Virus record (IMG/VR): IMGVR_UViG_3300023216_000330
Coordinates: 1 to 22,687 of that record
DNA from: a virus
Reading direction: 5' to 3' (one strand)
DNA length: 22,687 bases
Of this stretch, positions 503 through 19,616 are shown in pieces. Numbering within the stretch: position 1 is the first letter of the stretch; each line of letters starts with the position of its first letter. The position numbers were made by a program, and so were the translations under genes. The notes under the pieces were generated by a model that was not told where the DNA came from, ran no database searches, and saw only the letters and a list, made by a program, of their open reading frames with translations.

Positions 503-884
503 GCGATCACCACCGCCCCAGTGGCGACCCCCCTGGCGTAAAGGAGAGTCCGGCAACCCATCTGGTAAACCTGTAAAACACAGCAAGGACCTTGCCAGGA
601 AGATACTGTTCTCCACACAGAACGGGGAGATGTTGGTCAAGCGCCTAGTAGCGTTGGCCCAGGGCGAGATAGAGGGCTCCAAGCCCAGCGACCAGATCCG
701 CGCCATAGAACTACTTATGGAACGGGCTTTCGGTAAAGCCACCCAGGTCATAGAGATCGAAGGCGAAGTGATACACCGCGCCATAAACGACTTCTCAGAT
801 GATGAACTAAGAACCCTCGTAGATCTGAGGAAACGCATCATAGAGGGTACTTCACGGGTGAGTGATGATAAAGACAGTCCATGA
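495..884 (+). CDS. DUF5681-type protein, candidate terminase small subunit
   Basis: The N-terminus carries the basic motif KGESGNPSGKP at residues 16-26, which matches the KGxSGNPxGRP signature of DUF5681. That family is common next to phage large terminases and often annotated as TerS-like. The rest (129 residues in all) is predicted mostly helical and charged, as expected for a small oligomeric DNA-recognition subunit that selects the packaging site and hands DNA to TerL. The start was set at the ATG at 495 because a purine-rich AGGGGGAG stands about 8 nt upstream; a longer frame begins at 444 but lacks such a site. The 3' end overlaps the large terminase by about 20 nt. Position and motif are seen directly; the TerS role is inferred. 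Confidence 0.72.
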   Translation: MIERSPPPQWRPPWRKGESGNPSGKPVKHSKDLARKILFSTQNGEMLVKRLVALAQGEIEGSKPSDQIRAIELLMERAFGKATQVIEIEGEVIHRAINDFSDDELRTLVDLRKRIIEGTSRVSDDKDSP

Positions 885-2367
885 ACATGAGTCTCTGGCA
901 CTAGAGGTCGGCGAAGCAGCTAGTTTCGCGTTAGCACAAAGACACTTCAGCGACTTTTTGCACTACGTATATGTACTTGAACCACCCCCTGGCAGGGGGG
1001 TGATCCCCTTTGAGAGATGGGACCACCTAGTAGAGGTATGCCAATACCTAGAAGATGAGAAGCTGATCGTCTGGTTGAAGTCCCGCCAGACCGGGGCATC
1101 CTGGCTCCTTGCAGCCTACGCTACTTGGACGGCCATGTATAAAGAAGGGGCACTGGTCTTGCTCTTATCCCAGGGGGAAGAAGAATCGAAGGTATTGCTC
1201 TCAAAGAGCCGTTTCATCTATGAGAGACTCCCCGTGGGGTTGAGGACGCAACTTGGCACGGACTCCAGACAAGAACTCACCTTCCCCACGATGGAATCAG
1301 GTATCAAAGCCCTCCCGTCTACCGATAAGGCAGGCCGGTCAGCAACCGCATCCCTAGTCATACTGGACGAGGCCGACTTCCACGAACACTTGGAATCGAA
1401 CTATGCCGCAGTCAAGCCCACCATCGACGACCTAGGCGGCCAACTGATCATGGTGTCCACATCCAACGCCCAGAACGCACGCTCCATGTTCAAGAGGGTC
1501 TATCAGGAAGCCCCCGATAATGGGTTCAAGAAGATCTTCTACGGGTGGAACGTGCGCCCCGGCCGGGATAACGAGTGGTTCACCGCTAGACAGCGCGAGT
1601 ATTCGGACATCTCACTGTTCGAGAAAGAATACCCCGCAAGTGAAGCCGAAGCCCTCTCCCCACCTCGGAGCATAGCCGCTTTCGATCACGACATCCTTAA
1701 CTTGATGTCGCAAGACTGCCGTACCCCTATCCGCATCACCCAGGTTGGCCCAGTCACGGCAAATATCTGGCAAGAATTCCACCCTGGCAAGAGATACGTG
1801 GCCGCAACGGACACATCCCACGGCACCGGCGGCGACTACGCCGTAACCGTGGTGCTAGATATAAGCACAGGCTACGTTGTTGCCGATATCCAGACCAACT
1901 TGATCCCCCCGGACCAACTTGCGTTAGCCTCTATGGAACTGATGAAGCTCTATCACAACCCTGTCTGGGGAATCGAAGATAACGACTGGGGCGTGCTTAC
2001 CATCTCCACAGCCAGAGAGGCCCGGTATCCCCGCTTGTATTACAGGGATGACGACAAGTGCGGGTGGCATACAGATGAACGCTCCAGGTATATACTCTGG
2101 GGAGAACTGATAGAAGCTGTATTCGATAGACTTATAGTCGTGCCCAGTCAAGAAGGACTGAACCAGTTCTACTCGGTCATCCGTAATCCCAAGAAGAGTG
2201 GACGGATAGAAGGTCAGGCCGGAGCCCATGACGACTACCCTTTGACCGTAGGCATAGCGTGGCAGCTTAGGCGCTTTGCCCAGTCCACTGGTCGGGATCT
2301 CTACGGCCCCCAGGAGAGTGGCTGGAAACGCATATTAGGACGCAACCGTAACCGTTTGAGGTGGTAG
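865..2367 (+). CDS. terL: Terminase large subunit (packaging ATPase/nuclease)
   Basis: This is the DNA-packaging motor: an N-terminal ATPase pumps DNA through the portal and a C-terminal RNase H-fold nuclease cuts concatemers. The 500-residue length is typical. Motifs seen: a terminase-type Walker A (KSRQTGAS, residues about 72-79), Walker B plus catalytic Glu (LVILDEAD, about 164-171), a coupling motif (MVSTSN, about 196-201), and three nuclease acidic sites: D316 in ATDTSHGTGGDY, E371/D372/D374 in GIEDNDWG, and D456/D457 in AHDDYP. The C-terminus is basic, with several Arg. A GTG at 862 is also in frame, but the GGGTGA site at 856-861 gives usable spacing only for the ATG at 865. The portal gene follows after 1 nt. 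Every core motif appears intact. Confidence 0.95.
   Translation: MIKTVHEHESLALEVGEAASFALAQRHFSDFLHYVYVLEPPPGRGVIPFERWDHLVEVCQYLEDEKLIVWLKSRQTGASWLLAAYATWTAMYKEGALVLLLSQGEEESKVLLSKSRFIYERLPVGLRTQLGTDSRQELTFPTMESGIKALPSTDKAGRSATASLVILDEADFHEHLESNYAAVKPTIDDLGGQLIMVSTSNAQNARSMFKRVYQEAPDNGFKKIFYGWNVRPGRDNEWFTARQREYSDISLFEKEYPASEAEALSPPRSIAAFDHDILNLMSQDCRTPIRITQVGPVTANIWQEFHPGKRYVAATDTSHGTGGDYAVTVVLDISTGYVVADIQTNLIPPDQLALASMELMKLYHNPVWGIEDNDWGVLTISTAREARYPRLYYRDDDKCGWHTDERSRYILWGELIEAVFDRLIVVPSQEGLNQFYSVIRNPKKSGRIEGQAGAHDDYPLTVGIAWQLRRFAQSTGRDLYGPQESGWKRILGRNRNRLRW
2358..2363 (+). promoter_or_regulatory. Ribosome binding site deciding the TTG start of the portal gene
   Basis: GAGGTG lies inside the end of the terminase gene, 5 nt before TTG at 2369. 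There is no ATG in the portal frame between the terminase stop and the conserved coding sequence, so this site supports TTG as the true initiation codon. Confidence 0.6.
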
Positions 2368-2368
2368 T

Positions 2369-4204
2369 TTGGCTTACGACGATAAACCGACAATAGAGTC
2401 CATCCGCCAGATGACCCGGTATCTGCAAGGTCTATGGTCACGCACGCATACCAAGTGGCAGGAAGTAGACAGCTATTACCAACAGAAGTTCAAACTCTGG
2501 CCCGAAGGTATGAACCGCCCCGAATGGCTGAAGCCAGCCCGCTCACGCTCCATCGTCGATCACGCCGTAGACCACCAGCTGGCCTACGAGCCGATGATCC
2601 ATCGGTGGCCCAGTACCCAGACCGAAGTGAGTAAGCGCCGGGCCGACCAGGTGGAGCCTGCCATGAAGGCTATCTTGGATGAGGCGTCCTTATTTGAGCC
2701 GAGCCTCACCTGGAAACAGGTCGGGAAACACCTCCTCTTATATGGGTACGCCGTGGTGGAAGATGGCCTAGATAGTGGTTGCATGACCCACCGTCGGGAG
2801 AAACCCAAGAAGGGGCGGAACGAACCGCAAGACGAATACGAAAGGCGCGTCCGTATCCACCGTAACGCCGTAAAAGGCATGATGCCCTTTCGTACCCGCG
2901 CCCCTCACCCTGCCCGCGTGCTACTTGATCCCACTGAAAAAGAGCCTAGGATAGCCGTAAAACACGCCTACCGACGCTCCATAGACCTTGAAGAGATCAC
3001 CCAGGTGCGTATGTCCGGCGCCCGGGCCAAGCGGGGAGAGGTCAAGCCCTGGAAGCCCGGCGAGGACCCCTTTGAACTTATCATGGTAGACGAGTTCTGG
3101 TCAGAGTGTTGGCACGCGATGGTGGCTAATAACGAACTCTTATTCGTCGAGAAGAATACTTGGGGGTTCGTGCCCTACAGCCACGCTTTCTCTGGTTACG
3201 GCCAGGAAGTGACGGAATTGGAGGAATGTGACCCCAGTTACCTAGCTGTCGGCATCTTAGAACCCGTCATGCCAGTACTTAAAGCGCAGGCACAGGCCAT
3301 CGCAGGTCGGCACAACGCGCTCATGGAAGCTACGTTCAACCCCACAGGCACGGTCATGGACTCAGCCGAACTCCAAGAGCAGATGGCCCGTGGCGACGTT
3401 ATCGAGATGGGCAACCGGGGCGACGTTTGGAAGATGGATATGCCGAACCAACCTAACTGGATGTTCCAGTCCGAGGAATGGTTGGACCGGGATATCGAGA
3501 TGGGCACCTTCTCCCGCGCCCTGCAAGGTATCCGAGAAACCGGCGTTTCGACAGTTGGTCAACAAGCGATACTTACAACTGCTGCTGGTAGGAAATTCGT
3601 ATCCCCTAGTAAACAACTGCAACATCTTGCAACACAATCAGCGTCACATATCTTGCAATGGATAGATGTACTCGATTTGAGCCTAAGAATCAGGGGGCAT
3701 GTCATAGACCCCAGCATGATTGAGAGCGACTATTCTATCCTGGTCAGCTTCGAGCTTGTTGACCCCGTGATGCAGTTACAGCACCGCGAACTTGGACTGA
3801 GAGAGGTACAGCAGGGACTGAAGTCGAAGGAGACTTACTGGTCGGCAGACGCCAAACTGGAAGATGCCACTGGTGAGCAACGCCGGTTGCTTGAAGACCT
3901 TATTAGAGCAGACCCCCGGGTCCAAGAGGTCATGGCAAAGGCCGTGGCTCGTGAGGCTGGCATACTTAATATGCTAGAACAACAAGAAGAAGAACAGGCC
4001 AAGCAGCAAGCACAGGCCCAGGCCCAGGCTCCAGGCGGCGCTATGCCGGGAGAGGAAGGCCCGATGCTTGGCCCTGACGGTATGCCGATACAACAGAGTA
4101 TGGGCGCTATGGCTGGGATGGGCGGGACAGGCAGACCGACACGGAACCCACTTACCCCAGGCACCGCAAGCCCGAGCAGAGTTGGACAGGAGTTGGCACG
4201 ATGA
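2369..4204 (+). CDS. Portal protein
   Basis: A 611-residue protein directly after the terminase, in the standard portal position. Portals form the dodecameric ring at one capsid vertex through which DNA enters and leaves, and they nucleate procapsid assembly. Sequence features fit: a helical N-terminal region, a long central alpha/beta body, and a segment around residues 390-440 with the RETGVS...Q..L pattern and long helices typical of portal stem/wing regions. From about residue 535 the chain becomes Gln/Ala/Glu-rich and then Gly/Pro/Met-rich, a low-complexity tail often seen in portals of this size. It starts with TTG, supported by GAGGTG 5 nt upstream. The stop overlaps the next start in an ATGA junction. 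The family call rests on position and overall pattern rather than a diagnostic motif. Confidence 0.85.
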   Translation: MAYDDKPTIESIRQMTRYLQGLWSRTHTKWQEVDSYYQQKFKLWPEGMNRPEWLKPARSRSIVDHAVDHQLAYEPMIHRWPSTQTEVSKRRADQVEPAMKAILDEASLFEPSLTWKQVGKHLLLYGYAVVEDGLDSGCMTHRREKPKKGRNEPQDEYERRVRIHRNAVKGMMPFRTRAPHPARVLLDPTEKEPRIAVKHAYRRSIDLEEITQVRMSGARAKRGEVKPWKPGEDPFELIMVDEFWSECWHAMVANNELLFVEKNTWGFVPYSHAFSGYGQEVTELEECDPSYLAVGILEPVMPVLKAQAQAIAGRHNALMEATFNPTGTVMDSAELQEQMARGDVIEMGNRGDVWKMDMPNQPNWMFQSEEWLDRDIEMGTFSRALQGIRETGVSTVGQQAILTTAAGRKFVSPSKQLQHLATQSASHILQWIDVLDLSLRIRGHVIDPSMIESDYSILVSFELVDPVMQLQHRELGLREVQQGLKSKETYWSADAKLEDATGEQRRLLEDLIRADPRVQEVMAKAVAREAGILNMLEQQEEEQAKQQAQAQAQAPGGAMPGEEGPMLGPDGMPIQQSMGAMAGMGGTGRPTRNPLTPGTASPSRVGQELAR

Positions 4205-4813: not shown

Positions 4814-4906
4814 ATGGGGAAGATACGTGGCCGGACCTTGAACGGAGAGACTGGAACGGGCGAATACTACTTGGCACCGTCGATATGGAGCAGTTCGCCG
4901 GGGTGA
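4814..4906 (+). CDS. Possible 30-residue leader ORF coupled to the 885-aa gene
   Basis: ATG at 4814 follows GGGGAAAGG (4802-4810) and opens a 30-codon frame starting MGKIRGRTLNGETG and ending with TGA at 4904-4906, so it overlaps the start of the next large gene by 22 nt. Spacing from the AGG is short (3 nt). If translated, it could deliver ribosomes to the ATG at 4885, which has no ribosome site of its own. No homology is recognisable and the alternative reading in the neighbouring frame looks equally protein-like, so this is a weak call. Confidence 0.25.
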   Translation: MGKIRGRTLNGETGTGEYYLAPSIWSSSPG

Positions 4907-7542
4907 TCAAGGCTTTAGAAGCTAGGCTCGGGGACCTATCCAAGTACGGGTTCGATAAGGATGCTGATTACCAGGTCATCCCGTTAGGCGACCAGTATGA
5001 CTCAGATATAGTCATATCAAATGGCAAGGTCACCAAGATAGATAAGGTCAAGCCCGCTGCCGCACTTAAACCAGGAGAGTACGAGGTCAGCGCAGGACGT
5101 TTACGCAAGGATATCGGCGTCGAGCTTACTGGCTATGATGTCTTAGAACAACGAACGGGCGAACTCTCTGCTATCAAACAGCGTGTAGACCCTAGTTACA
5201 TCATCGACCCCCAGACGATGATGCCCTATTTCCAGCAGCCTGACGGGACTTTGAAGGACGCTGCCGTTCCTTCCATCGATGACCAGATATCCATGCACCT
5301 TATCGAAGGCAACATGGACGCGGCTGTCACCAAGGCCAACTTCCGTGACCGCCCAACCAGCCTGGAATACTTCAATGCGGCGATGGACTGGGCACGTACC
5401 CCCGCAGACATCTTCACCATCTCTGCCATAGTCCGTGGCATCTTTGAACCCACTCCCGGCCCGATGGGCGAACTACGCCGTGTCGGTGCGCCGCCTGCGT
5501 GGGCCACACAGGCTTGGGTCGGCCTACAGAACTCTATGGGCATCCCCACAGAGAACATGACATCTACGCCAGGCGCTGAGCCAGGGACTGTCAATGATAT
5601 GACGGTGGCATCTTCCAGCGGTCTTGTACCCACTAACTTCGTGGCACTCAACTCAGCCCCGGTCAGCCTAGACGGCGGCAAGACTCTCACGACAGCGGCT
5701 GCTGCGCCTACCACTGACCCAGCTACCACAGCTGAGGCAATCGTAGATACAGCCCCTATCGGAGCCGACGCTAGTAGTGGTTTTGTCCCTGATACCCCTG
5801 GTGATGAGTGGAAGGATTGGGCCTTCGAGGACATGACATCAGGGATGCAATATAGTGATTTGGCTAGGAGATTGGTTGAAAGCGGCGCGTGGACATATGA
5901 CTCTATACGAGAGACGATTAACGAAGACCTTGCATTTGATGAAGAAATGCCAGCCCGCCTTGCATGGTTGCAGCAGCAACTAGCCTCTACTACTGCCCCT
6001 GAAGTTATCGATGGGAGCGAAGACCCTGGCACGTTAGCCGCAGTAGCACCAACCCCAGTACCAGAATGGATGACTCGGTTCGACACAGGCGAAGGCGAAG
6101 AAATTGCCGCAGCGTCCCAAGCCCCACCAGTAAGCGACTTTACGGCTGTTGTTGCCCCCGGCCAGACTCGCGCGGAAGATGAAGGAATCGACTTTGACTA
6201 CGGGACGTTTGGTGCCGATGCAGCACAGGCAGTAGACCCAGCATCTGGGCTAACTGTTGACGAGATGATTGCAGCAGGTAGAGAACAAGAGATTCGCGCA
6301 CAGGTTGGACAGTATGCCATTGACCAAGCTGTGGAGGGTGGCGGATATGGGGCTGATGATTTAGATGATATATTCGCCACCCCTGGCGAAGGCTTTATGT
6401 CTAGGGGCCAGTTAAATGACCCTGATTACTGGGCACGGATTGGTGCTGAATATCTGGAAGACCCGGAAAGTGCGCGGATAGCACAGCAGGTTAGAGACAG
6501 ACAGGCTCAGATAGAGTATGCTACCGAATTTCCGCAAGGCCAGTATCGAAGCGAGTATCCATATACCTATATTCCAGGCTCCAAACCAGAGGTAGCTGCT
6601 GGTGATTTAACTCCCGCCAGTTGGACTACGTACCCCCGTCCTAAAGAAGCAGGGCCAATAGATACTGGGCCTGCCACGCCTATTATCACTGGCGAGGAGA
6701 TGCGCCGCCGCAATCTAGGAGAGGAGACTACTACCTTTGCTACTGCTCTTGCCCCGGCTAGTATCGTTCCTACCGCAGCGGCGGGGACATCAATGGCGGA
6801 ACCGTGGCAGAGAGCAAGGGCCATAGAGTCAATAACCGAAGAACCTTTCTATGGTGGTATAGACTTTATCCCAGACGTGCGTGTTGAGCCTGAGCAACGC
6901 GGCTTTATGGAAACGATGGCCGGTATCATCCCGTTCTTTGGCTCGTCGTCGGTAGGGGGAGCCGAGGCTGACATACCATATGTTGAAGACTACATAGAAC
7001 CCGCCGAGTGGTATGGCGAAGGTGCAAGGGGAACACGTACTGATGATAGGCTCACCCTCGTTGGGGAATCTGGCCCTGAGCTGGCACTCTTTCCTAATGG
7101 TACGGAGATAATCCCATTAGACAGGAAGATGAAGCCTGCCCAGGCAAAGAGATTACGCCGACGCGGTGAGTTTGCTAAGGCTATAGATTCTTTTCAATTT
7201 GGTGGCTTCGTCGGTGATATGGGGCCAGAGGTTACGGACTTACCCCCAGGTGCACAGGTTATGCCTGCGGGTGTCTCAGAGATGCTGACAGGACGGCCTA
7301 CCCGCGCACCCCGTTCCTTGTTCCGTCAGGCGGGGATGAGAGCGCCATCTGCACAAACAATAAGTAACCTTATTCCTTCTGAGATAGAAGCCTATCAAGA
7401 GCTTGCTTTAACTAAGGGAGGAATAGGCCAAGTTGATTTTGAACGTGAGTTCCGCTCGATGGTTCCGATGGGTCAGGGCGGCACACGGCAGGCAAGATTC
7501 ACTCCTAGGGGAACAGGGAGGACGCGGTATGGGAATAGGTAA
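4885..7542 (+). CDS. Large low-complexity virion protein with tape-measure-like C-terminal motif
   Basis: An 885-residue protein, not recognised as a whole. Residues 1-215 look folded (helical start EQFAGVIKALEARLGDL, then mixed alpha/beta). Residues 215-470 are Ala/Thr/Pro-rich and acidic, probably largely disordered. From residue 726 the motif VGESGPELALFPNGTEIIPL resembles the VGExGPEL...G..IIP element found near the C-termini of many tape-measure proteins, and a looser second copy (GPEVTDLPPGAQVMPAG, about 780-797) follows. The tail is basic and Gly/Arg-rich. Its place between portal and scaffold, and before the giant internal protein, suggests a virion-borne or ejected protein. ATG 4885 lacks a ribosome site; the same frame is open back to 4738 without a standard start. 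It ends 14 nt inside the next small gene. Confidence 0.75.
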   Translation: MEQFAGVIKALEARLGDLSKYGFDKDADYQVIPLGDQYDSDIVISNGKVTKIDKVKPAAALKPGEYEVSAGRLRKDIGVELTGYDVLEQRTGELSAIKQRVDPSYIIDPQTMMPYFQQPDGTLKDAAVPSIDDQISMHLIEGNMDAAVTKANFRDRPTSLEYFNAAMDWARTPADIFTISAIVRGIFEPTPGPMGELRRVGAPPAWATQAWVGLQNSMGIPTENMTSTPGAEPGTVNDMTVASSSGLVPTNFVALNSAPVSLDGGKTLTTAAAAPTTDPATTAEAIVDTAPIGADASSGFVPDTPGDEWKDWAFEDMTSGMQYSDLARRLVESGAWTYDSIRETINEDLAFDEEMPARLAWLQQQLASTTAPEVIDGSEDPGTLAAVAPTPVPEWMTRFDTGEGEEIAAASQAPPVSDFTAVVAPGQTRAEDEGIDFDYGTFGADAAQAVDPASGLTVDEMIAAGREQEIRAQVGQYAIDQAVEGGGYGADDLDDIFATPGEGFMSRGQLNDPDYWARIGAEYLEDPESARIAQQVRDRQAQIEYATEFPQGQYRSEYPYTYIPGSKPEVAAGDLTPASWTTYPRPKEAGPIDTGPATPIITGEEMRRRNLGEETTTFATALAPASIVPTAAAGTSMAEPWQRARAIESITEEPFYGGIDFIPDVRVEPEQRGFMETMAGIIPFFGSSSVGGAEADIPYVEDYIEPAEWYGEGARGTRTDDRLTLVGESGPELALFPNGTEIIPLDRKMKPAQAKRLRRRGEFAKAIDSFQFGGFVGDMGPEVTDLPPGAQVMPAGVSEMLTGRPTRAPRSLFRQAGMRAPSAQTISNLIPSEIEAYQELALTKGGIGQVDFEREFRSMVPMGQGGTRQARFTPRGTGRTRYGNR

Positions 7543-7687
7543 GACGTTGTGCAAGTGGTTTGGGCACGCATGGAATGATAACCCCAAGGAATGGGGACGG
7601 AAAGACTGCAATCGGTGTAAGTTGAGCCACGTATATTTCTATAGCAAAGAACGCGGCGCATACTTTGAAGAGATAGCGCATGGCTAA
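7529..7687 (+). CDS. Small zinc-binding-like protein (DUF1660-like)
   Basis: A 52-residue protein with C8, H13, C27, C30 and H34, starting MGIGKTLCKWFGHAW. The C..FGH.W....C..C layout resembles the small phage proteins of DUF1660, which probably bind one zinc ion; their function is unknown. I chose ATG 7529 rather than the upstream in-frame ATG at 7433 because GGGAGGA at 7516-7522 is well placed and because the longer frame would lie inside the preceding gene. It overlaps the 885-aa gene by 14 nt and the giant gene by 8 nt, so it is wedged tightly between two virion-type genes and is likely translated with them. Confidence 0.7.
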   Translation: MGIGKTLCKWFGHAWNDNPKEWGRKDCNRCKLSHVYFYSKERGAYFEEIAHG

Positions 7688-10600
7688 TCCGTATGATCGG
7701 ATAATAAAGACACCAGCCGAGAAGCGTGCTGACGCCTTTCGGAAAAGTCTAGAGCCACAGCCACAGGTTGGCGACACCACGCTAAGCATGGAAGACCTGG
7801 TGCAGATGGAGTATCAGGAAGGCGGCATAGGTGTCGGTACTGCGGGCTTTATCATGCCTGGTGAAAGCGCCGGGACCATACCACAAGAAGGTGGCGGTGG
7901 TTACCGTGTGCCTTTTGAATCTTTCGAGCAGGCGCTAACGTCACAGCAGCAAGACCAGTTCTTACACCCATTCCCTATAGAACCGCAGGCACCTGACCTA
8001 TTCACCCCGTTCTCTATGGAGCCCCCAGAGCCAGAACAGCCCTGGTATACCAAGGGAAATCTGCCCCACATCCCTTATGTAAGCCCAGCGGCAGCAACAG
8101 TGCGGGATGCGGTAGGTGAGGCTTGGGCTGCTGGTACAGAAATACCCGCTACTATCATGGGCGGAATCAAAACAACCATTGGTGAAACCCTCGGCCAAGA
8201 GACTGAGGATTTCTATGGCAAGTGGTATGCCCTGGGTTTCTTAGGCGAAGAAGGGGCTCAAGAGTGGATGAAGACTCACGGATTCCCTGCTACTGCCTGG
8301 ATGTTTGAAGGGATAGACCCCAAGACAGGGTTTGCCAATACTATCGTAGAAGAACTACTTGCTCAAGATCCTACTGACCCTGATGCTATAACCAGACCAG
8401 GGGACCTCTACCATAAGATCATAGACACCCATATCGCCCGCCCTATGAGGCAACAGATATTCATGGGGGTTGTATCCCCTGATATCGTTTTCCCTGTCGG
8501 CGGTGCAGTTAGCAAGCTATACCGGGGACTGAAGATAAGCGGCAAAACAGCAATTGCTCTAGTCAAGAACGCTGATGATATCGGCAAGGTCATCGACCCC
8601 CAGTCTGTGTATTACAGAATCATAGACGAAACACTGCAAGTAGGCGAACAGCAGATAATCATCGTCAGTCGGGACTTCCCTAATGGCCGCCGCATCACCG
8701 TGCGTCCTTCTGGCCTTGCTGTCGTGGAACCGCCGACACCTAGTGCTGCACCATTTGTGGAGTACAGCGATTGGAAAAATGCGAAGGTTGGCGATATCCT
8801 TCGCCCATATAAGAGAGGCAAACAGTACCAATTAGTCTCTGAGAATCCTAACAAGTGGGACGTTGTACCTTATCCAGGCCCGAAACCAGGTGTGCCTAAT
8901 ATTGAAAGAATAGAGGAAATAGGGGCGCTAGGGCCTGCTGCGACGACTACTTTCCCTGCTACTGGCGCACAAGCATTGAAGGGTAGACTCCGCCTGGAAG
9001 TCAGTAAGGGCTTAGACCCTACAGCTGCAGTAGACGCTATGGAGTTCATAGATAGTCTGCCTGCAAATCTACTAGACGACCTGATGTCTTCGTTCCGAAA
9101 TGTTCTAGATGAAGCTACTGCCGCCCGCCTCGGCGAGCCGGCCGGAACGAGAATAGGGGGATTCTACCAAGCCTCCCCCACGATGCTTACCGTAATAAAG
9201 CAGGTGGTCAATACGTCAGCTGATCCATCTCGTGTCATCATCCATGAGATCTTCCACCACATCGAACAGTTCATTCCCCCTGAGCAGATCGGCCTATTGC
9301 GGACCCAGTGGGCCAAGGATATGGCTGATAATGGCAAGAGTGTCATAGAGGCTACCAACAACCTTAGAGCCGCTCGCACAGGTGGGCGCGTCCTTACAGA
9401 TGCTGAACTACTCTCGATGAACAAGGCTTATCGGTATGAGGGTGGGTTCAATGAATGGTTCGCGGAGGTGATGGCCGACAAAGCTATGCGGGACATCCTC
9501 CAAGAGATACCAGAATATCGGAATCTGCTGCAAAGTATATTTGATCAGTTAGAAGCTATAGCAATAGGGACTATGAACTTCCTCTTGCGTAAGGGCCGCA
9601 CAGATGAAGCTGAAGCGATATACCAGAATATTCTAAAGAACAAATTCTCTGACCGGCTACGGTACTGGTTCGTTGGGCCTGGCGAAGATGCACTTCCTTT
9701 TGCAGAGGCAGGGCCAAGGATGCCCTGGGAGGCTGCTGATCCGGGCATCGACGTTGTTGCTGAAGCACTAGCTAAACAGGGAGATGAGTTCCAGATATTG
9801 CCTGGTAGTGCTAGTAGGGCTGAGGTATTAGAGGCTTCTGCAAAATTAGGCCCACCCAAGGCGCCGTCAATTATTGACCCTGGGCTCTATACAGAAGGAC
9901 CTCACCGTGCCTTTATACCCTCCAGCCGCATCTTACGGGACGAGCCAGCCTTTGCTGCCTCAGGTGTGACTGACCTAGAGCGCGCTGGTGCCCTTGAAAG
10001 ATTCTGGGCATGGCTACCCAAGGAACTCCCAGGTCTTGGGGATGTTGGGCTCCCCACAGATGCGTTCAAGATCACGCGCTTTGTAAGACCGGGGAAGATA
10101 ATCCCGGGAGCCAAGGCTGTCATAGATGAGGATGTCTCGAAGATTGGTGGTTTAAGCCTAGATAGATGGGTGCGTACCCAGCGTGCCAACTTAAGTAGTA
10201 TCGCTAACCAAATAAACACCAAATGGGCGACTGACGCTGCTGATATACAGCAACAAACTATGAAACGCTTCGGGATAGAGCTACCAAGCGACCAGGCCGG
10301 AGCCTTATCGCGCGTAGAACAGCGCCTTGGCCTTCCTGATGAAGATCTTGCTAGACATCATATATCCCATACGCGTGTGGGCCAGGCAAACGAGGTTGGC
10401 CCCCTTGTCCGTAAGGTCAATGCGCCAGCACTAGCCCCTAATGTATTCGGGGATAAAGAACTGCTCCATATCATAGATGGCGATAGCCCTTACGGCGAGG
10501 TCGTAGCCGCTTTAGAGATACAGAAGGTAGGTGATAAAGTCGGTGTCGAGGTCTTGGCGTTCTATCCTATCGCTGAAGGTACTGGCCCTGGCATGTTCGG

Positions 10601-13600
10601 GAGAGCGGGGATGCAGCAGATACTCAGGCAGATCGGAGATATCTACCCCAATCTAGATAACATGAACTTCGCTGGCAGATTTGCTAGAGAAGGTAACACC
10701 AACGCTAATCAGTTCATAGGCACCGCTACCGAGTCTATGGCCCAGCGCCTGAGCGATACCAATATCAGTGACGATATCGCCGACGCTTTAAATGCTAGCT
10801 TCCCCCGTGCGAGTTCTGTGGATGCAGCCCGGGGAGGTGAAGCAGGTGTAAGTGCCTACGGTTATATCCCGAAGCCCACCATCGAGGGCTACACGCACAC
10901 CATAGCGGAACGTATCAATGAAGCACGCGGGATGGCGGCATTGGAGCCCTGGCAGCGGGCAGCCCTGGGCGATAGGGTCTGGCCCATAAAACCAGGCGAA
11001 CTACTCTTTGATATGGCTGAGTACGGCCACTACAACATCCTTTTCGATAAGCCTGGCCTCGCTAATAAGATAGCGGATAGAGTACCAGGCGCGGAGAAAT
11101 TGCTCGGCATTTGGAACCGGGCCCAGTTAGAACTAAAGGACCCCGTGCGGTTCATCGGGCACGAAGCCACTCTACAAATAGAGATGGACGGTACACGGGC
11201 ACATTTCGCGGTCCTAGCCTGGAGGGCCGTAGCCTACCCAGAGCTAGGCATGAAAGAGATCAGGGGTCTGCGCGATATTGCCATGAATAACAAGGGAATA
11301 TGGCGGGCGCAGAAGGTGACTGGCTACGAGGCTGACCTCGTAAAGAACTCCCCCATGCACGGCACCATAGATGACATCTTGAAAGACATGGATGAGGTGG
11401 AGAAGGGCATCCGTGTACCGGCGGAGATAAACCCCAGGACTGGCAAAGAGTTCGTACCGACTGGCAAGAAGAAGCAGGTCTACTTCTTGAACGAAAAACA
11501 GAAGGCTCATATTAAGATGGGCATGGATATGATGGAGCAGAACCTACGTCGTAACCAGGCCATCGGTGTGAACGTCCAGACCCTTGCAGAGAACTACTGG
11601 CACCGTATGGTTCGCGGAGGGCCAGCAGGCCACAAATCCCAGAAGACTTTCGATGAGATCTGGAGGAAGATATCCACTCGCCCGACACCCGCTGGCCGCG
11701 CCAAAGAAGACTATATGTTCGGGCGCGTCTTCGACGATATGGATGAAGCGATTAAGTTGGGATTCCAATGGGAGACTGACCCGGCTGTACGCTTACTAGC
11801 CCGTCTTAATGCCGGTATAGATAGCTATACCCATAAGATGGCCTGGGATAAGGTCTTGAATCTAAAGACCGCTGAAGGTAAGCCTTTCAAGACACGAGCA
11901 GAGAGAGCGGCAGACCCGAAATGGTTCACTGAAGGCCCAGAAGTCAAGAAATCATTAAAGCAAGCTAGAGAGAATCGCGTTCTTGCCCGTAAGTTATATA
12001 AAGCTGATCCGACCCCCCAGCTTGAACTTGCCCTCCGTAGGGCTGATGCGGAATTCGTCACCGCATACAGACAGTACCGCGCCATAGATGCGATGGCTAA
12101 CCCGAATTTCCATGAGGTACTCCTGGGTAGCCGCATCAATGACCGCTCACTCGTCGATGAGATCTTCGAGAATATCTATATACCCCAGGTACAGCGTGCT
12201 AGGAGAGGAGCGGATCCTCTCACTGGTCCCATCGTAGAGACTACCGCTGAGATTGCCCAGCTATCCAGGGCTCTATTGACCAACGTGGACCTTGCGGGCA
12301 TGTTCATTAACGGGCAGACCCTACTTTGGCGTAACCCCGTCGTCTGGTTTAGAGCCGTTAGCGAGAGTACGAAGGCTTTTGTCCGTACCCCGTGGGTATA
12401 TGCGAATAAGAACCACCGGTTCATGGATGAAGGGTCGGAGCTAGGGGGCATCATCATGCCTACCGAATATATGTTCACCCAGACAGGTATAGCGTCCGTA
12501 CCTACCAGGCTGCCTTTGTTCGGGCCGGCGTTCAAAGCGTTCCAGCGGTCTTTTGAGTGGTTCATCATCATAGGCCAGACAGAGATGTACAAGGCCACCA
12601 GGACCAAGGTGTTCAAGGGGCGGGTCAAACCTAACGAGTTCATACCCCTGGAGTCAGACGAGGCGCGAAACGCCCTGATTGACCTTAATAAGGCCATACG
12701 TAAAGAACTGGGCACCGAGAGCCACGCCATCTTGGGTATCCGGCCCACACAGAGGACCATAGAGGCATTGACAGCCTTTGCGGCGCGGTTCATGCGCGCC
12801 AATATGGGGCTGATAGCTCTGGCCGTGCGCCCTACTCGCGGAGCAGATAGCATAGAAGCCAAGCGGGCTCTGATGCAGATGCTGGCGGGTGTCACATCTA
12901 TGACCACTGGCATCCACTACGTGCAGACAGGCAGACCTCCGAACTTCCATGACCCGTATGCGGCAGACTGGTTCCAGTTCCCCGTCGGTAGGACTTACTT
13001 CAACCTAATGGGGCCGCTGTATGGCTATTTCCGCACGATGGCCAGGATCAGTCTGGCCTTGATAGAGGGCGACACAGCCAAAGCCTGGAAAGAGGCTACT
13101 AACTTCTTGAAAAGCCGCGCCGGCGTACCTATCAGGGCGATGGGGATCACTGTAGACATCATGGCTACAGGTGAATATCGCACCTTTGAAGGCGAGGAGA
13201 TTTCCGGCATCGGTGGCGTTCCCGCCCTTCTTTCAGAGTTCGGTGAACCTATATCGGTAGGTGGTGTCATTGAAGCCATACAAGAAGGGCGCTATGAGGC
13301 TATCGCGGCTGAAGTATTCGGCCTACAGGGGCGTGCGTCGCCTAATGCCCAGATGGACATACTCTTTCAAGAGGCGATGAATGACCCACAGCATGAGCTG
13401 TATCGCCGTAGGGTAAGGCTAGGTCTTACGGAACGGGGCAAGACCTGGTATGACGCCGACCCGCTCGAACAGAAATTTATGGAAGAAGAATTCTCGACCA
13501 TAGCCGAGGATATAGTCCGAACAGGCCGGGGTCCATACGGGGATGCGTCCAGGGAATGGGATGAGCAGGATGCTAGATATATCATTGAGCAGACTGAACT

Positions 13601-14447
13601 AGCAAGTCAGCTCCATGAACCTGTAAGTCCCGAAGACCTAGAGAAGGGCGTGCGGCCAGTAGACGGGATCGAGTACCAAAAGCAGCTAGAAGACATCCAG
13701 AAGCGCCGCTGGGCCGAGCATGAGAAGACCATTCGGGATTACGAACTCTTCCAAGAAGAACCTGAGGCTGATGATAGATTCGAGCAGGCCATGTTCGACT
13801 ACCACAAGGTCTTCGAGCTATCCAAGGGGACAGGCGATACGATCCTCTGGGGTATCTTCGATGAACTGATGGAGAAGTTTGAAGACGACCACGCTCCAGA
13901 AGAACTAGAGTACGTACTGAGTGTCTCTGGGTTGAATAACGACACTACGGCCATGCAGTTACGGAAAGACAAACGGGCCTTACGTGAGGTGTGGGACTGG
14001 CAGGAGGAACTAGTCAAGGACGAGAAAGAACTACTGCCAGAACAGCGTCTTGCCTACGAGCAATATAAGAACATGAGCATCACAGCCCAGCGCATGGCTA
14101 ACCCGGCGGTTAGAAGGATACAGACATGGGTCAGCAACATGACCTCAGATTGGCTGATGAAACGGGATCAAGCAGGCGATGCCCAGGCAGGATACCTAGA
14201 ACAGAAACTGGTTCACTGGGGCTATGAGACAAGCCCTGTGACTGGGAAGGGCATCGAGGAGATGAGGAGCATCATCGAGCGGATGGGCTACGACCAGAAC
14301 CCTCAGGCGTTAGAGCTTAGAGATCCCAGGAGGGCTAGACCTGATCTATATCCTGAATTGTTTGGACAGCAAGCAGCTCCTTCTATCCCTAATGAGTCTA
14401 TAGAAGATGATGCACAGTGGTTGCAGAGGCTACGCAGCGGTAGATAG
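7680..14447 (+). CDS. Giant internal virion protein with zinc-peptidase motif
   Basis: A 2255-residue multidomain protein (about 250 kDa). Residues 1-130 are Pro/Gln-rich. A metallopeptidase-like domain lies near 480-610: HEIFH at 522-526 matches HExxH, and NEWFAE at 591-596 supplies a Glu 66-70 residues later, as in gluzincin-type enzymes. Around 930-1010 is an alpha/beta segment with a G-rich turn (GTGPGMFGRAG) that loosely recalls GNAT acetyltransferases; this is tentative. Residues 1080-1630 are mostly helical. Residues 1690-1800 hold three hydrophobic stretches, followed by FLKSRAG...DIMATGEYRTFEGEEISG (about 1808-1842), a pattern I associate with very large phage virion/polyvalent proteins. 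The C-terminus is charged and helical. Size, position before scaffold and capsid, and the peptidase suggest an ejected protein that helps DNA cross the cell envelope. The ATG lies inside the end of the previous gene. Confidence 0.85.
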   Translation: MANPYDRIIKTPAEKRADAFRKSLEPQPQVGDTTLSMEDLVQMEYQEGGIGVGTAGFIMPGESAGTIPQEGGGGYRVPFESFEQALTSQQQDQFLHPFPIEPQAPDLFTPFSMEPPEPEQPWYTKGNLPHIPYVSPAAATVRDAVGEAWAAGTEIPATIMGGIKTTIGETLGQETEDFYGKWYALGFLGEEGAQEWMKTHGFPATAWMFEGIDPKTGFANTIVEELLAQDPTDPDAITRPGDLYHKIIDTHIARPMRQQIFMGVVSPDIVFPVGGAVSKLYRGLKISGKTAIALVKNADDIGKVIDPQSVYYRIIDETLQVGEQQIIIVSRDFPNGRRITVRPSGLAVVEPPTPSAAPFVEYSDWKNAKVGDILRPYKRGKQYQLVSENPNKWDVVPYPGPKPGVPNIERIEEIGALGPAATTTFPATGAQALKGRLRLEVSKGLDPTAAVDAMEFIDSLPANLLDDLMSSFRNVLDEATAARLGEPAGTRIGGFYQASPTMLTVIKQVVNTSADPSRVIIHEIFHHIEQFIPPEQIGLLRTQWAKDMADNGKSVIEATNNLRAARTGGRVLTDAELLSMNKAYRYEGGFNEWFAEVMADKAMRDILQEIPEYRNLLQSIFDQLEAIAIGTMNFLLRKGRTDEAEAIYQNILKNKFSDRLRYWFVGPGEDALPFAEAGPRMPWEAADPGIDVVAEALAKQGDEFQILPGSASRAEVLEASAKLGPPKAPSIIDPGLYTEGPHRAFIPSSRILRDEPAFAASGVTDLERAGALERFWAWLPKELPGLGDVGLPTDAFKITRFVRPGKIIPGAKAVIDEDVSKIGGLSLDRWVRTQRANLSSIANQINTKWATDAADIQQQTMKRFGIELPSDQAGALSRVEQRLGLPDEDLARHHISHTRVGQANEVGPLVRKVNAPALAPNVFGDKELLHIIDGDSPYGEVVAALEIQKVGDKVGVEVLAFYPIAEGTGPGMFGRAGMQQILRQIGDIYPNLDNMNFAGRFAREGNTNANQFIGTATESMAQRLSDTNISDDIADALNASFPRASSVDAARGGEAGVSAYGYIPKPTIEGYTHTIAERINEARGMAALEPWQRAALGDRVWPIKPGELLFDMAEYGHYNILFDKPGLANKIADRVPGAEKLLGIWNRAQLELKDPVRFIGHEATLQIEMDGTRAHFAVLAWRAVAYPELGMKEIRGLRDIAMNNKGIWRAQKVTGYEADLVKNSPMHGTIDDILKDMDEVEKGIRVPAEINPRTGKEFVPTGKKKQVYFLNEKQKAHIKMGMDMMEQNLRRNQAIGVNVQTLAENYWHRMVRGGPAGHKSQKTFDEIWRKISTRPTPAGRAKEDYMFGRVFDDMDEAIKLGFQWETDPAVRLLARLNAGIDSYTHKMAWDKVLNLKTAEGKPFKTRAERAADPKWFTEGPEVKKSLKQARENRVLARKLYKADPTPQLELALRRADAEFVTAYRQYRAIDAMANPNFHEVLLGSRINDRSLVDEIFENIYIPQVQRARRGADPLTGPIVETTAEIAQLSRALLTNVDLAGMFINGQTLLWRNPVVWFRAVSESTKAFVRTPWVYANKNHRFMDEGSELGGIIMPTEYMFTQTGIASVPTRLPLFGPAFKAFQRSFEWFIIIGQTEMYKATRTKVFKGRVKPNEFIPLESDEARNALIDLNKAIRKELGTESHAILGIRPTQRTIEALTAFAARFMRANMGLIALAVRPTRGADSIEAKRALMQMLAGVTSMTTGIHYVQTGRPPNFHDPYAADWFQFPVGRTYFNLMGPLYGYFRTMARISLALIEGDTAKAWKEATNFLKSRAGVPIRAMGITVDIMATGEYRTFEGEEISGIGGVPALLSEFGEPISVGGVIEAIQEGRYEAIAAEVFGLQGRASPNAQMDILFQEAMNDPQHELYRRRVRLGLTERGKTWYDADPLEQKFMEEEFSTIAEDIVRTGRGPYGDASREWDEQDARYIIEQTELASQLHEPVSPEDLEKGVRPVDGIEYQKQLEDIQKRRWAEHEKTIRDYELFQEEPEADDRFEQAMFDYHKVFELSKGTGDTILWGIFDELMEKFEDDHAPEELEYVLSVSGLNNDTTAMQLRKDKRALREVWDWQEELVKDEKELLPEQRLAYEQYKNMSITAQRMANPAVRRIQTWVSNMTSDWLMKRDQAGDAQAGYLEQKLVHWGYETSPVTGKGIEEMRSIIERMGYDQNPQALELRDPRRARPDLYPELFGQQAAPSIPNESIEDDAQWLQRLRSGR

Positions 14448-14518: not shown

Positions 14519-15289
14519 ATGGCAGACGAGCAGCAAGTATCGGAGGAAGTGGTAACTCAGGAACCTGACGCCCCACAGCCAGAAGTACAAGAAGCTGAAA
14601 CCGAGGCTACGGTAGAGCCAGAAGTAGACTGGAAGACTCAAGCTGAAAGGCTAGAGCAGCAATTAAAGACTGAGCAAGGTAGGAATCGAAAGCGCGATGA
14701 CACTGATACCGCTATTCTTGGTATAGGTGACCGTATGGTTGCTATGGAGCAATCAAACGCAGCCCTGATCAAAGCATTAGCGGAAGGTGACACCGAGAAT
14801 CTTCCACAACAGCTCACTCAAATACAGGCGCAATCACAAAATAACCAGCGTGGCAGGACGTACCAGGGACGATACGAAGCACTTACTAACCAGTTACGTG
14901 GGGCGATGCAAGACGTGGATGGGAATGAAATCCTAGACTTGCATGTTGCCCCCGAACTAGAAGAAGTGCGCCAATCATGGGTAGAAGCGCATAAGAATAA
15001 AAGCGTGTCCGGACTATATAGTACATTGGTCCGAGCCCATGAAGTGGTACGGCAAGCAGAGCGTAGTAAGGCGGTCCAGGCGACTAATAACGTCAGAGAT
15101 GAGGAACGTAAAGCTGCTACCCAACGGCTAGAAGAAGCCGGTATCTATGACTTAGATACTGGCCCCACTAGCGCCGGAGGCGGTGCCAGCCAAGATGACT
15201 GGACGTGGTTTACTCAGACATACGGTAAGATGGATAACCCTAGCCGCGCAGAACACGCAAGAGCAACCAAAATAAATAAACGAAGGTAG
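14519..15289 (+). CDS. Scaffolding protein candidate
   Basis: A 256-residue, highly charged and mostly helical protein directly upstream of the major capsid gene, the classic scaffold position. Residues 1-37 are acidic and low-complexity (Glu/Gln/Pro/Val), residues 38-60 form a likely coiled coil (DWKTQAERLEQQLKTEQGRN), a Gln-rich stretch follows at about 98-112, and the C-terminus is basic (ATKINKRR), as in scaffolds that contact the capsid protein through a basic terminal segment. Scaffolds direct procapsid assembly and then leave before or during packaging. There is no protease motif in it and no separate prohead protease gene nearby. It is preceded by a strong GGAGGT and followed after 9 nt by the capsid gene. 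The call comes from composition and position. Confidence 0.72.
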   Translation: MADEQQVSEEVVTQEPDAPQPEVQEAETEATVEPEVDWKTQAERLEQQLKTEQGRNRKRDDTDTAILGIGDRMVAMEQSNAALIKALAEGDTENLPQQLTQIQAQSQNNQRGRTYQGRYEALTNQLRGAMQDVDGNEILDLHVAPELEEVRQSWVEAHKNKSVSGLYSTLVRAHEVVRQAERSKAVQATNNVRDEERKAATQRLEEAGIYDLDTGPTSAGGGASQDDWTWFTQTYGKMDNPSRAEHARATKINKRR

Positions 15290-15298
15290 GAACTAGCT

Positions 15299-16186
15299 AT
15301 GGCTGCTGGCGATACCATTACCCAATCACTAGCCGATAGTCTTGATACTGTTGTGGCGTCGGCTCGACAAGTCCGTGAATATGAGGGCGTCATGCCCAAC
15401 CTCGTTGACAAAGTAACTTTGTCAGAGGGCACCGGCACCAGCTGGCGTGAGATTTCGATGGCTGCGCTTAGTGCTCAGAACATCACTGAAACCACCACGC
15501 TGGATAACCCACAGCAGATGTCTGATACGGTCTTCAGCATCACCCCCACGGTCACTGGTATTCAAACCCTGGTGACTGACCGGGTTGCTTCCCGTATCAA
15601 CTCGCAGTCCTATGCCCAGCTTGGTAGCTTGGCACAACAGGCAATCCAGCGTAAGAAAGACGAAGACGGCCTCACTGTCCTTGACGGCGCGACCACTATC
15701 CTTTCCGGTGCTGGTACTACCCTGGCTTCTGGCGTCATCGCTGCGGCGGCTTACCGCATCAGCAGCAACGCCACAGAGCCTGGGAACCCGCCTTACCGTG
15801 CGGTTCTCCACGGCTTCCAGATAAAAGACCTCTACGACGAGCTAACCGTCAATGTCGGTACGGCAGCAGGTGGTGAAGTCACTGAGGGTCTTACCGCCCG
15901 TGTATTCACAGAGGGCTTCCGTGGCAAGATTGCGGGGGTCGAAGTCTTTGAAGACGGGAACATCACCATCGACTCTACGACCCTCGATGCCAAGGGCGGC
16001 GTGTTCGCTCAAGAGGCCATCGTGATGGTACAGGGACGCGCTCCCCGTACCGCTACGGTACGCCGGGAAGACATCGGTGGTGGAGCTACCGTGGTGTATC
16101 TCTATGACGAGTATGCCTACGGCGAGCGTAGCGCAGGAAACTGGCTGTTCGAGATACAATCGGACGCTGCCCTGCCTACGTCGTAG
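15299..16186 (+). CDS. Major capsid protein
   Basis: A 295-residue protein that most likely forms the icosahedral shell. It begins with a short helical N-terminus (DTITQSLADSLDTVVASARQ), followed by a segment of the type VMPNLVDKVTLSEGTGTSWRE, a central helical part (SYAQLGSLAQQAIQRKKDEDG, about residues 104-124) that could serve as the spine helix, and beta-rich domains ending in YGERSAGNWLFEIQSD. This layout and the length suit HK97-fold capsid proteins of the kind often grouped near the N4 gp56/P22 type, although I cannot assign the subfamily. Position after the scaffold and unusually regular codon choice support high expression. An AGGTAGGA-like site precedes ATG 15299. The stop TAG shares one nucleotide with the GTG of the next gene. 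Confidence 0.82.
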   Translation: MAAGDTITQSLADSLDTVVASARQVREYEGVMPNLVDKVTLSEGTGTSWREISMAALSAQNITETTTLDNPQQMSDTVFSITPTVTGIQTLVTDRVASRINSQSYAQLGSLAQQAIQRKKDEDGLTVLDGATTILSGAGTTLASGVIAAAAYRISSNATEPGNPPYRAVLHGFQIKDLYDELTVNVGTAAGGEVTEGLTARVFTEGFRGKIAGVEVFEDGNITIDSTTLDAKGGVFAQEAIVMVQGRAPRTATVRREDIGGGATVVYLYDEYAYGERSAGNWLFEIQSDAALPTS

Positions 16187-16404
16187 TGAACATCCGGCGC
16201 ACCATCTGGTCTGAGGCTCATGGCCCCATACCTAAAGGGTGGGTCGTACATAATCTGAATGGTCAACCTGCGGATGTGCGGTTAGAGAACCTAGCCGCCA
16301 TCCCTAGGGATAGCATATTCCTAGCAGTGGCCCCCTATAGGGTGCGAATACGAAATCTAGAGCTACAGCTCAAACAAAAAGGTGAACAATATGGCACAAG
16401 GTAG
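16186..16404 (+). CDS. HNH-like small protein, probably catalytically altered
   Basis: A 72-residue protein whose first 40 residues match the HNH_3-type pattern: GPIPKGWVVHNLNG at 13-26, then PADVRLENL at 28-36. In active relatives the central sequence is usually HH and later DN; here they are H22-N23 and D30-V31, and the trailing His-containing segment is replaced by an Arg-rich helix (YRVRIRNLELQLKQK). It is therefore likely to be inactive or to use a different metal site. It starts with GTG overlapping the capsid stop by 1 nt and ends 14 nt inside the following gene, so it is coupled to capsid translation rather than looking like a recent free homing insertion. It may be a domesticated DNA-binding or capsid-associated protein. 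Confidence 0.7.
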   Translation: MNIRRTIWSEAHGPIPKGWVVHNLNGQPADVRLENLAAIPRDSIFLAVAPYRVRIRNLELQLKQKGEQYGTR

Positions 16405-18786: not shown

Positions 18787-18801
18787 CCATTAGTCTAATG
18801 G
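18787..18801. repeat. Inverted repeat over the start codon of the first LamG-like gene
   Basis: CCATTAG, one T, CTAATGG: a perfect 7-nt inverted repeat that includes ATG 18798. As RNA it could fold as a 5-bp stem (CCATT/AATGG) with a 5-nt loop, hiding the start codon. No strong ribosome site precedes this gene apart from GGGG at 18783-18786. It may be chance. Confidence 0.4.
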
Positions 18802-19616
18802 TACTCACCCGCGCTCCCTACGGTTCGCTGTACGCTGAGAAGCAGGCCATCTGGGCACCTGCCTATGAGGCACGTCTGGGGATAATTGGCTCCACGGGCA
18901 TCATCGTGCCGCTGTTTGATGCGAACCATGAGAATGCTGGCCGTACGACTACTACTTCCATTGGTGAGGAACAGTTAGTTTATACCCACGAGTCGGCTTT
19001 GACGGATTGGGACGTACCGCCAACTTTCATTGGCCCTTCCACTATCCCGTTACTGACATTCAATGGAACAGGGGAACAAACCGATACGCCCGACATTAAC
19101 TATTTTAGCCGTGACGATACGAGTGGGGAACCTTGGAGTCTTGGCTTCTGGGGTACATCTACAGCCGCTGGTTCTAACATGGTGATGTCAAAATACGCGG
19201 GCGGAAACATTGAGTGGCGATTTGCAGTAATAACTGGTCGTGGACAATTAGAAATTTCAGACCAAAGCGTACAGAAGTACATAAATCGTGCCGGGGCTAC
19301 CCAAATGAGTGCAGGAGTTCTGTCCTTTATTGTTGCAACTTATGATGGGGCCGGTGGCGCATCAGCAGCAGACTCAATCCACCTATATTTCAATGGCGTT
19401 CTGGATGATGGCTCGGCAACCAATGACGCTGCTTACGTCGGGATGGAGAACGGGACTGCAAAGATGGAGATTGGAGCTAGAAGTTATGGGTCGAGCAACA
19501 TATATGAAGGAACCATGGTAGGAGGCCCCCTCGGCCCCATCTTCACCCAGATAGAACTAACCGCCGACCAAGTCCTAGAACTCTACCAGCATGACCGCGC
19601 GTTGTTGGGGGTGTAA
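18798..19616 (+). CDS. LamG-like (concanavalin fold) virion protein, copy 1
   Basis: A 272-residue protein, first of three adjacent paralogues. The N-terminal 75 residues (MVLTRAPYG, KQAIWAPAYEARLGIIG) are shared by the set. Residues about 80-245 form a LamG-type jelly roll: FIVATYDG at 177-184 and LYFNGVLDDG at 196-205 match the W/FxxVxxTYDG...LYxNG core, and VGGPLGPI at 241-248 is the closing strand signature. The C-terminus (ELTADQVLELYQ...RALLGV) is again shared with the other copies. LamG domains bind carbohydrates or proteins, so a role in host recognition or virion decoration is likely. The start codon sits inside a short inverted repeat. The DNA of the core is AT-richer than the ends. 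Confidence 0.78.
   Translation: MVLTRAPYGSLYAEKQAIWAPAYEARLGIIGSTGIIVPLFDANHENAGRTTTTSIGEEQLVYTHESALTDWDVPPTFIGPSTIPLLTFNGTGEQTDTPDINYFSRDDTSGEPWSLGFWGTSTAAGSNMVMSKYAGGNIEWRFAVITGRGQLEISDQSVQKYINRAGATQMSAGVLSFIVATYDGAGGASAADSIHLYFNGVLDDGSATNDAAYVGMENGTAKMEIGARSYGSSNIYEGTMVGGPLGPIFTQIELTADQVLELYQHDRALLGV

What the first reader, a model, noticed from the sequence alone, without database searches (positions are those of the whole stretch)
7680..14447. A 2255-residue ejected-type protein carrying a zinc-peptidase signature
One uninterrupted gene fills 30% of the window. It combines HEIFH (522-526) with a candidate third ligand in NEWFAE (591-596), a long helical body, hydrophobic segments around 1690-1800 and a FLK...TGEY..FEGEE-type tail. 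Very large phage virion proteins that enter the host are known (for example N4 virion RNA polymerase and T7 internal proteins), but a built-in peptidase is uncommon. It could cut envelope or defence proteins at entry, or mature the virion.
Basis: partly seen in the sequence, partly recalled or inferred. Interest (0 to 1): 0.65.

Follow-up and report, generated by a model that had tools for sequence, protein, structure and literature searches.

The report
Swappable peptidase in giant phage protein
A very large marine-phage protein carries a zinc-peptidase module in an internal slot that is empty in most close relatives and holds a different enzyme-like module in another, so the protein looks like a carrier for interchangeable tools probably delivered into the bacterium at infection.

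Summary
Window 7680-14447 is one 2255-aa frame with HEIFH at 522-526 and NEWFAE at 591-596. The motif is not chance: a metallopeptidase-like domain (about residues 430-665) recurs in giant proteins of other phages. HExxHH and a downstream Glu occur in 80 of 80 members of a wider clade; E592, not E596, is the invariant candidate zinc ligand. AlphaFold2 puts both motifs on helices, but no solved zincin was matched, so fold proof is missing. Less expected: the peptidase fills a discrete internal slot. In six relatives with 86-94% identical capsid protein the slot is only 20-24 residues; in another (L015) it holds an ADP-ribosyltransferase-like domain. The same two cassettes, and a ParB-like one, sit in a second, diverged giant-protein lineage. 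A peptidase that close relatives lack, and that trades places with an ADP-ribosyltransferase-like module, is more likely a host-targeting early effector than a virion-maturation enzyme. Packaging, injection, zinc binding and activity are inferred, not shown.

The parts
7680..14447 (+). Giant protein gene, 2255 aa plus stop
   Evidence: full-length relative L002 (1884 aa) aligns at 53% and 58% identity on either side of the cassette
7680..8699 (+). Conserved N-terminal region, residues 1-340, ending in QQIIIVSRDFPNGRRIT
   Evidence: Aligned in L002, L008, L014, L015
8700..9788 (+). Cassette slot, residues 341-703 (363 aa here; 20-24 aa in six relatives; 192 aa in L015)
   Evidence: Slot lengths between the GRRIT and ILPGxASRAEV anchors
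8967..9674 (+). Zincin-like metallopeptidase domain, residues 430-665
   Evidence: Alignments with L084, L087, L089, L055; profile-profile match to the wide phage clade, probability 98%, E 2.5e-13
9243..9257 (+). HEIFH, residues 522-526: two predicted zinc-ligand His and the general-base Glu
   Evidence: in a predicted helix
9429..9431 (+). Tyr584, invariant in 57 aligned sequences, 8 residues before E592
9450..9467 (+). NEWFAE, residues 591-596; E592 is the predicted third zinc ligand
   Evidence: E592 invariant in 57 sequences; in a predicted helix
9789..14444 (+). Conserved body, residues 704-2255, starting at FQILPGSASRAEV; no recognised domain and no LPD38
   Evidence: no Pfam or PHROG match; LPD38 not found
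862..2367 (+). Terminase large subunit (context)
   Evidence: phrog_2 E 1e-19
2369..4204 (+). 611-aa protein in the portal position (assignment by position only)
   Evidence: Order TerL-portal as in HTVC112P; no sequence match
4885..7542 (+). 885-aa protein just upstream, also mosaic (context)
14519..15289 (+). Probable scaffold protein (context)
   Evidence: Same position as the annotated scaffold of HTVC112P/HTVC026P
15299..16186 (+). Major capsid protein (context)
   Evidence: 26-31% identity to annotated capsid proteins of four Pelagibacter phages; anchor for 80 related loci

Best explanation
The gene encodes a giant virion-associated protein of the polyvalent type. It is probably packaged in the head and injected with the DNA. 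An internal slot between two conserved regions carries one exchangeable effector module. In this phage the module is a zincin-like metallopeptidase whose zinc would be held by H522, H526 and E592, with E523 as general base. After delivery it most likely cleaves one or more host proteins early in infection; relatives use an ADP-ribosyltransferase-like module at the same site, or none. Shown by sequence: the conserved active-site pattern, the discrete slot, its different contents in close relatives, and shared cassettes between two diverged giant-protein lineages. Inferred: zinc binding, proteolysis, packaging, injection and a host target.
For: (1) HExxHH in 80/80 and the E[FW]WA motif in 80/80 relatives; E592 and Y584 invariant in 57 aligned sequences; both motifs on helices, mean pLDDT 78.6. 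(2) Residues 345-695 missing as a block in L002 while the flanks align at 53% and 58%; slot 20-24 aa in L002, L008, L014, L017, L019, L025, 192 aa in L015, 363 aa here. (3) L015's slot holds an ART-like domain: PF18760 E 6.7e-4, below the curated cut-off; 38% identical to the ART-like domain of L058, E 2e-30; recovered by an iterated profile started from an above-cut-off ART-PolyVal. (4) Second body lineage, 65-78% identical among its members: L055 zincin 66% identical to the window's, L058 ART-like, L052 ParB_N above cut-off. (5) The domain occurs beside ART-PolyVal and LPD38 in L084, beside ART-PolyVal and SNF2/helicase in L105 and LPD23 in L129, and in the 4914-aa DarB-like protein of Erwinia phage PEp14. 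(6) JC1 gp69, another DarB-like giant with an LPD38 region, was found in purified virions by mass spectrometry with 51 unique peptides (PMC9144972). (7) Gene lies directly before scaffold and capsid genes. (8) dN 0.25 against dS 0.96 between the window and L055 over 108 aligned cassette codons: purifying selection.
Against: No curated peptidase family matches the window's own domain. Only one catalytic domain is recognised here, so 'polyvalent' rests on relatives. No virion data exist for this phage family; the JC1 protein shares neither the body nor this peptidase clade with the window. The cassette in L055 lies at a contig end, where chimeras are likelier. The window's own cassette rests on one contig.
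Confidence: 0.6

Rival explanations
1. Self-processing: the peptidase cuts the giant chain, in the capsid or after injection, to release its parts. This is the role favoured for many such peptidases in PMC5512222, by analogy with P1 DdrB.
For: PMC5512222 notes that P1 DdrB is cut before packaging and carries such a domain; giant chains with several domains would profit from cutting.
Against: Relatives with the same N-terminal region and body lack the peptidase and have no substitute in the slot; the site can hold an ART-like domain instead, which cannot cut a chain.
Confidence: 0.24
2. Virion maturation: the peptidase processes capsid or scaffold proteins during head assembly.
For: Gene lies directly before the scaffold and capsid genes.
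Against: Phages with 90-94% identical capsid protein (L002, L008, L014, L019) lack the domain, so it cannot be needed for their maturation.
Confidence: 0.04
3. The peptidase acts on the envelope or peptidoglycan peptides during DNA entry.
For: Ejected proteins cross the envelope; many phages carry wall-cutting enzymes in virions (general knowledge; PMC5512222 section on peptidoglycan enzymes).
Against: The module is optional among close relatives with the same body; its neighbours in other giants are ART, ParB, SNF2 and LPD domains, which point to the cytoplasm.
Confidence: 0.08
4. The cassette in this window is an assembly chimera of two phages.
For: No independent contig spans the cassette junctions; only residues 1444-2255 are confirmed by the identical L003.
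Against: Reading frame kept through both junctions, flanks collinear with L002 on both sides, slot boundaries agree with those of L015; L084, L087 and L089 carry the cassette inside contigs.
Confidence: 0.03

Closest known systems
Phage polyvalent proteins with zincin-like metallopeptidase (MPTase) domains (Iyer et al. 2017, PMC5512222)
   Same: Giant protein coded among virion genes of a terminase-type phage; HExxH with a Glu on a later helix; the same domain clade sits with ART-PolyVal, LPD38, LPD23 and SNF2 domains in relatives
   Different: The window's body has no recognised LPD and only one recognised enzyme domain; the peptidase is an optional cassette in a defined internal slot. Whether this clade is among the 12 in that paper was not tested.
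DarB-like giant protein of Erwinia phages PEp14, Pavtok and Stean (PEp14 gp27, 4914 aa)
   Same: Carries the same wide peptidase clade with HEILHH and SEYWAVN
   Different: Twice the length; the cultured-phage search with the whole window protein found no match to its body
Phage N4 virion RNA polymerase
   Same: Giant ejected virion protein; contains an MPTase domain according to PMC5512222; one HExxH at 2228
   Different: No significant profile match to this peptidase clade; no polymerase domain recognised in the window
Phage P1 DdrB
   Same: HELGHH at 872, predicted self-processing peptidase (PMC5512222)
   Different: Only marginal profile similarity; 995 aa, different body
Anthrax lethal-factor-like zincins (Pfam ATLF, PF07737)
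   Same: Sub-threshold Pfam match over the HExxH region of relative L089 (E 0.09 for the whole protein; best E 0.0075 among cassette members)
   Different: Below the curated cut-off; no match for the window's own domain

Membership tests
Zincin-like metallopeptidase | HExxH on a helix, conserved | tested here: met
   80/80 relatives; predicted helix 87-102 of the model with the motif at 93-97
Zincin-like metallopeptidase | Third ligand Glu on a following helix | tested here: met
   E592 invariant in 57 sequences; in predicted helix 161-170
Zincin-like metallopeptidase | Zincin core fold with a small beta sheet, ligands clustered | tested here: inconclusive
   Strands barely predicted; no Foldseek or VIA match; distances could not be measured
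Zincin-like metallopeptidase | Match to a curated zincin family | tested here: inconclusive
   Only sub-threshold ATLF and M90 hits in relatives
Zincin-like metallopeptidase | Zinc binding and proteolysis | not testable with these tools
   Needs the purified protein
Polyvalent proteins (PMC5512222) | Large protein coded in the late/virion gene region of a terminase-portal phage | tested here: met
   2255 aa, between TerL and scaffold/capsid genes
Polyvalent proteins (PMC5512222) | Two or more domains of disparate activity in one chain | tested here: inconclusive
   One recognised catalytic domain in the window; met in L084, which has the same peptidase plus ART-PolyVal plus LPD38
Polyvalent proteins (PMC5512222) | Phage-type LPD38 domain (common, not obligatory) | tested here: not met
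   Not in the window, though giants L031, L046, L051, L054, L065 and L075 of the same capsid family have it
Polyvalent proteins (PMC5512222) | Packaged and delivered with the DNA | not testable with these tools
   Packaging is shown by mass spectrometry only for JC1 gp69 (PMC9144972)

The most novel reading that the evidence does not exclude
The giant protein is a delivery chassis with a dedicated effector slot: phages with nearly the same capsid exchange complete enzyme cassettes (metallopeptidase, ADP-ribosyltransferase-like, or none) at one site, and the same cassettes, plus a ParB-like one, occur in a second, diverged chassis lineage. If so, the metallopeptidase so common in such proteins acts here on host proteins rather than as the enzyme that cuts up its own chain.
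Probability: 0.5. Interest if true: 0.7.

Novelty: new variant of a known kind. Interest (0 to 1): 0.5.

Why it matters
Zincin peptidases are the most frequent domain of phage polyvalent proteins, and whether they cut their own chain or host proteins is left open in PMC5512222. A family of near-identical phages in which the peptidase is present, absent, or replaced by another enzyme-like domain at one site is a natural experiment that separates the two roles. It also gives a set of candidate early-infection effectors for uncultured phages, and a simple way to find more: look in the slot.

Tried and rejected
Pfam and PHROG scans of the whole protein and of pieces: no family. Full protein or cassette against cultured phage genomes: no convincing match. 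Cassette in bacterial and archaeal genomes: two scans found none. A weak plasmid match in Piscirickettsia (44 aa, E 0.3) lies in a stretch with no clear gene and was dropped. First AlphaFold2 model, 7 sequences, pLDDT 49.6: too poor. Second model, 57 sequences, pLDDT 78.6: helices as expected, but Foldseek on PDB and on viral models and VIA gave only helical, unrelated matches; taken as inconclusive. Profile comparison with N4 vRNAP, P1 DdrB and JC1 gp69: only PEp14 gp27 is a clear member. LPD38 in the window's body: tested, not found. A GNAT-like guess for residues 905-1045 found no Pfam support and was not pursued. Direct repeats at the cassette borders as a recombination trace: none.

Full report
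OBSERVATION. The frame at 7680-14447 is open over 2255 residues. HEIFH is at 522-526 and NEWFAE at 591-596; it is the only HExxH. Composition alone predicts 0.039 such motifs in a protein of this make-up, so the motif needed testing by conservation.

CONTEXT. The gene lies behind a terminase large subunit (phrog_2, E 1e-19) and directly before a probable scaffold gene and a major capsid gene. The capsid protein is 26-31% identical to annotated capsid proteins of four Pelagibacter phages; in two of these that were inspected the same place between portal and scaffold holds an uncharacterised gene of about 340-610 aa. A scan with the capsid protein gave 80 related viral contigs, many with a giant gene in the same place.

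THE PEPTIDASE IS A CASSETTE. The only full-length relative found directly, L002 (1884 aa, capsid 90% identical), aligns with residues 1-344 and 696-2255 at 53% and 58% identity and lacks everything between. Measured between two anchors (..GRRIT and ..ILPGxASRAEV), the slot is 20, 24, 22, 20, 20 and 23 residues in L002, L008, L014, L017, L019 and L025, 192 in L015 and 363 in the window. These phages have capsid proteins 86-94% identical to the window's. In L015 the slot carries an ADP-ribosyltransferase-like domain: PF18760 at E 6.7e-4, below the curated cut-off, and recovered by an iterated profile that began with an above-cut-off ART-PolyVal of L105 (iteration inflates that E-value).

THE SAME CASSETTES IN ANOTHER CHASSIS. 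A second giant-protein lineage (L052, L055, L058; 65-78% identical to each other over the body, capsid about 68% identical to the window's) shows almost no similarity to the window's body. Yet L055 begins, at its contig end, with a zincin cassette 66% identical to the window's over 109 residues, L058 has an ART-like domain 38% identical to that of L015 (E 2e-30), and L052 has a ParB_N domain above cut-off. Cassette and chassis thus have different histories. Between the window and L055 the cassette shows dN 0.25 and dS 0.96, so it is under purifying selection.

THE DOMAIN. Further copies lie in giant proteins of other phages: L084, L087 and L089, with HEVAHH and (N/S/G)EWFAE. L084 also has ART-PolyVal above cut-off and LPD38 at E 8e-44. 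From two more distant members a wide clade was found: 182 viral contigs, 80 kept. All 80 have HExxHH and all have E[FW]WAVN; most were recruited by the second motif, so the first is an independent result. Profile-profile comparison joins the window's group to this clade with probability 98%, E 2.5e-13. Over 57 sequences E592 and Y584 are invariant, while the position of E596 is V or N in the wide clade. Hence H522, H526 and E592 are the likely zinc ligands and E523 the general base; Y584 may help catalysis (inference).

STRUCTURE. With 57 sequences AlphaFold2 gave mean pLDDT 78.6; HEIFH lies in helix 87-102 and E592 in helix 161-170 of the 236-residue model, with pLDDT about 80-90 around HEIFH. 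The beta strands of a zincin core were barely predicted, and searches of PDB and of viral models gave no zincin. The fold is therefore not shown.

KNOWN KIND. Iyer et al. 2017 (PMC5512222) describe polyvalent proteins: giant, multidomain, coded among phage late genes, predicted to be injected. Zincin MPTases are their commonest domain, in about 36%, and N4 virion RNA polymerase has one. The authors mainly suggest self-processing and leave effector action open. The wide clade here sits with ART-PolyVal, SNF2/helicase or LPD23, often with an LPD38 region, and in the 4914-aa DarB-like protein of Erwinia phage PEp14. JC1 gp69, a DarB-like giant with the LPD38 region, is a virion protein by mass spectrometry (PMC9144972). 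The window's own body has no LPD38, but other giants of the same capsid family do (L031, L046, L051, L054, L065, L075).

MECHANISM. The module is absent from phages with the same N-terminal region, body and nearly the same capsid, and another enzyme-like domain can occupy its site. That argues against a needed role in maturation or in processing the shared body, and for an accessory effector acting after delivery. I give this 0.6, self-processing 0.24, envelope action 0.08, maturation 0.04, artefact 0.03. All steps after the sequence pattern are inference.

VERDICT. A real, conserved peptidase-type module in a probable ejected giant protein: a known kind of thing, with a cassette slot that makes its role testable.

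Noticed in passing
window 4885-7542: The 885-aa protein just upstream is mosaic too: its ends are 70-74% identical to L082 and 57-63% to L014 while the middle does not align. No known family.
   Followed up: partly
window 16186-16404: Small HNH endonuclease gene directly after the capsid gene (phrog_1891, E 7e-9); L002 has a frame at the same place (7545-7745).
   Followed up: no
window 18798-21277: Three successive proteins of 272-278 aa each with a ConA-like lectin/Laminin_G_3 match (the third just below cut-off), possibly duplicated surface or fibre proteins.
   Followed up: no
L141: A giant protein of at least 2526 aa with the peptidase clade and at least three ART-like stretches.
   Followed up: no
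L084 and L092 (contig IMGVR_UViG_3300048878_000193): The giant gene runs off one contig end and continues at the other with an overlap, so the 42.9 kb contig is probably a complete genome with terminal repeats.
   Followed up: partly
L052:1-1074: ParB_N domain above cut-off in the N-terminal variable part of a giant protein.
   Followed up: partly
L078:5390-5902: GNAT-like acetyltransferase stretch in the variable N-terminal part of another giant of the same capsid family, below cut-off.
   Followed up: no
L090: A 3029-aa protein with two HExxH sites, HEIFHH at 1228 and HEFGH at 1508, possibly two peptidase domains.
   Followed up: no
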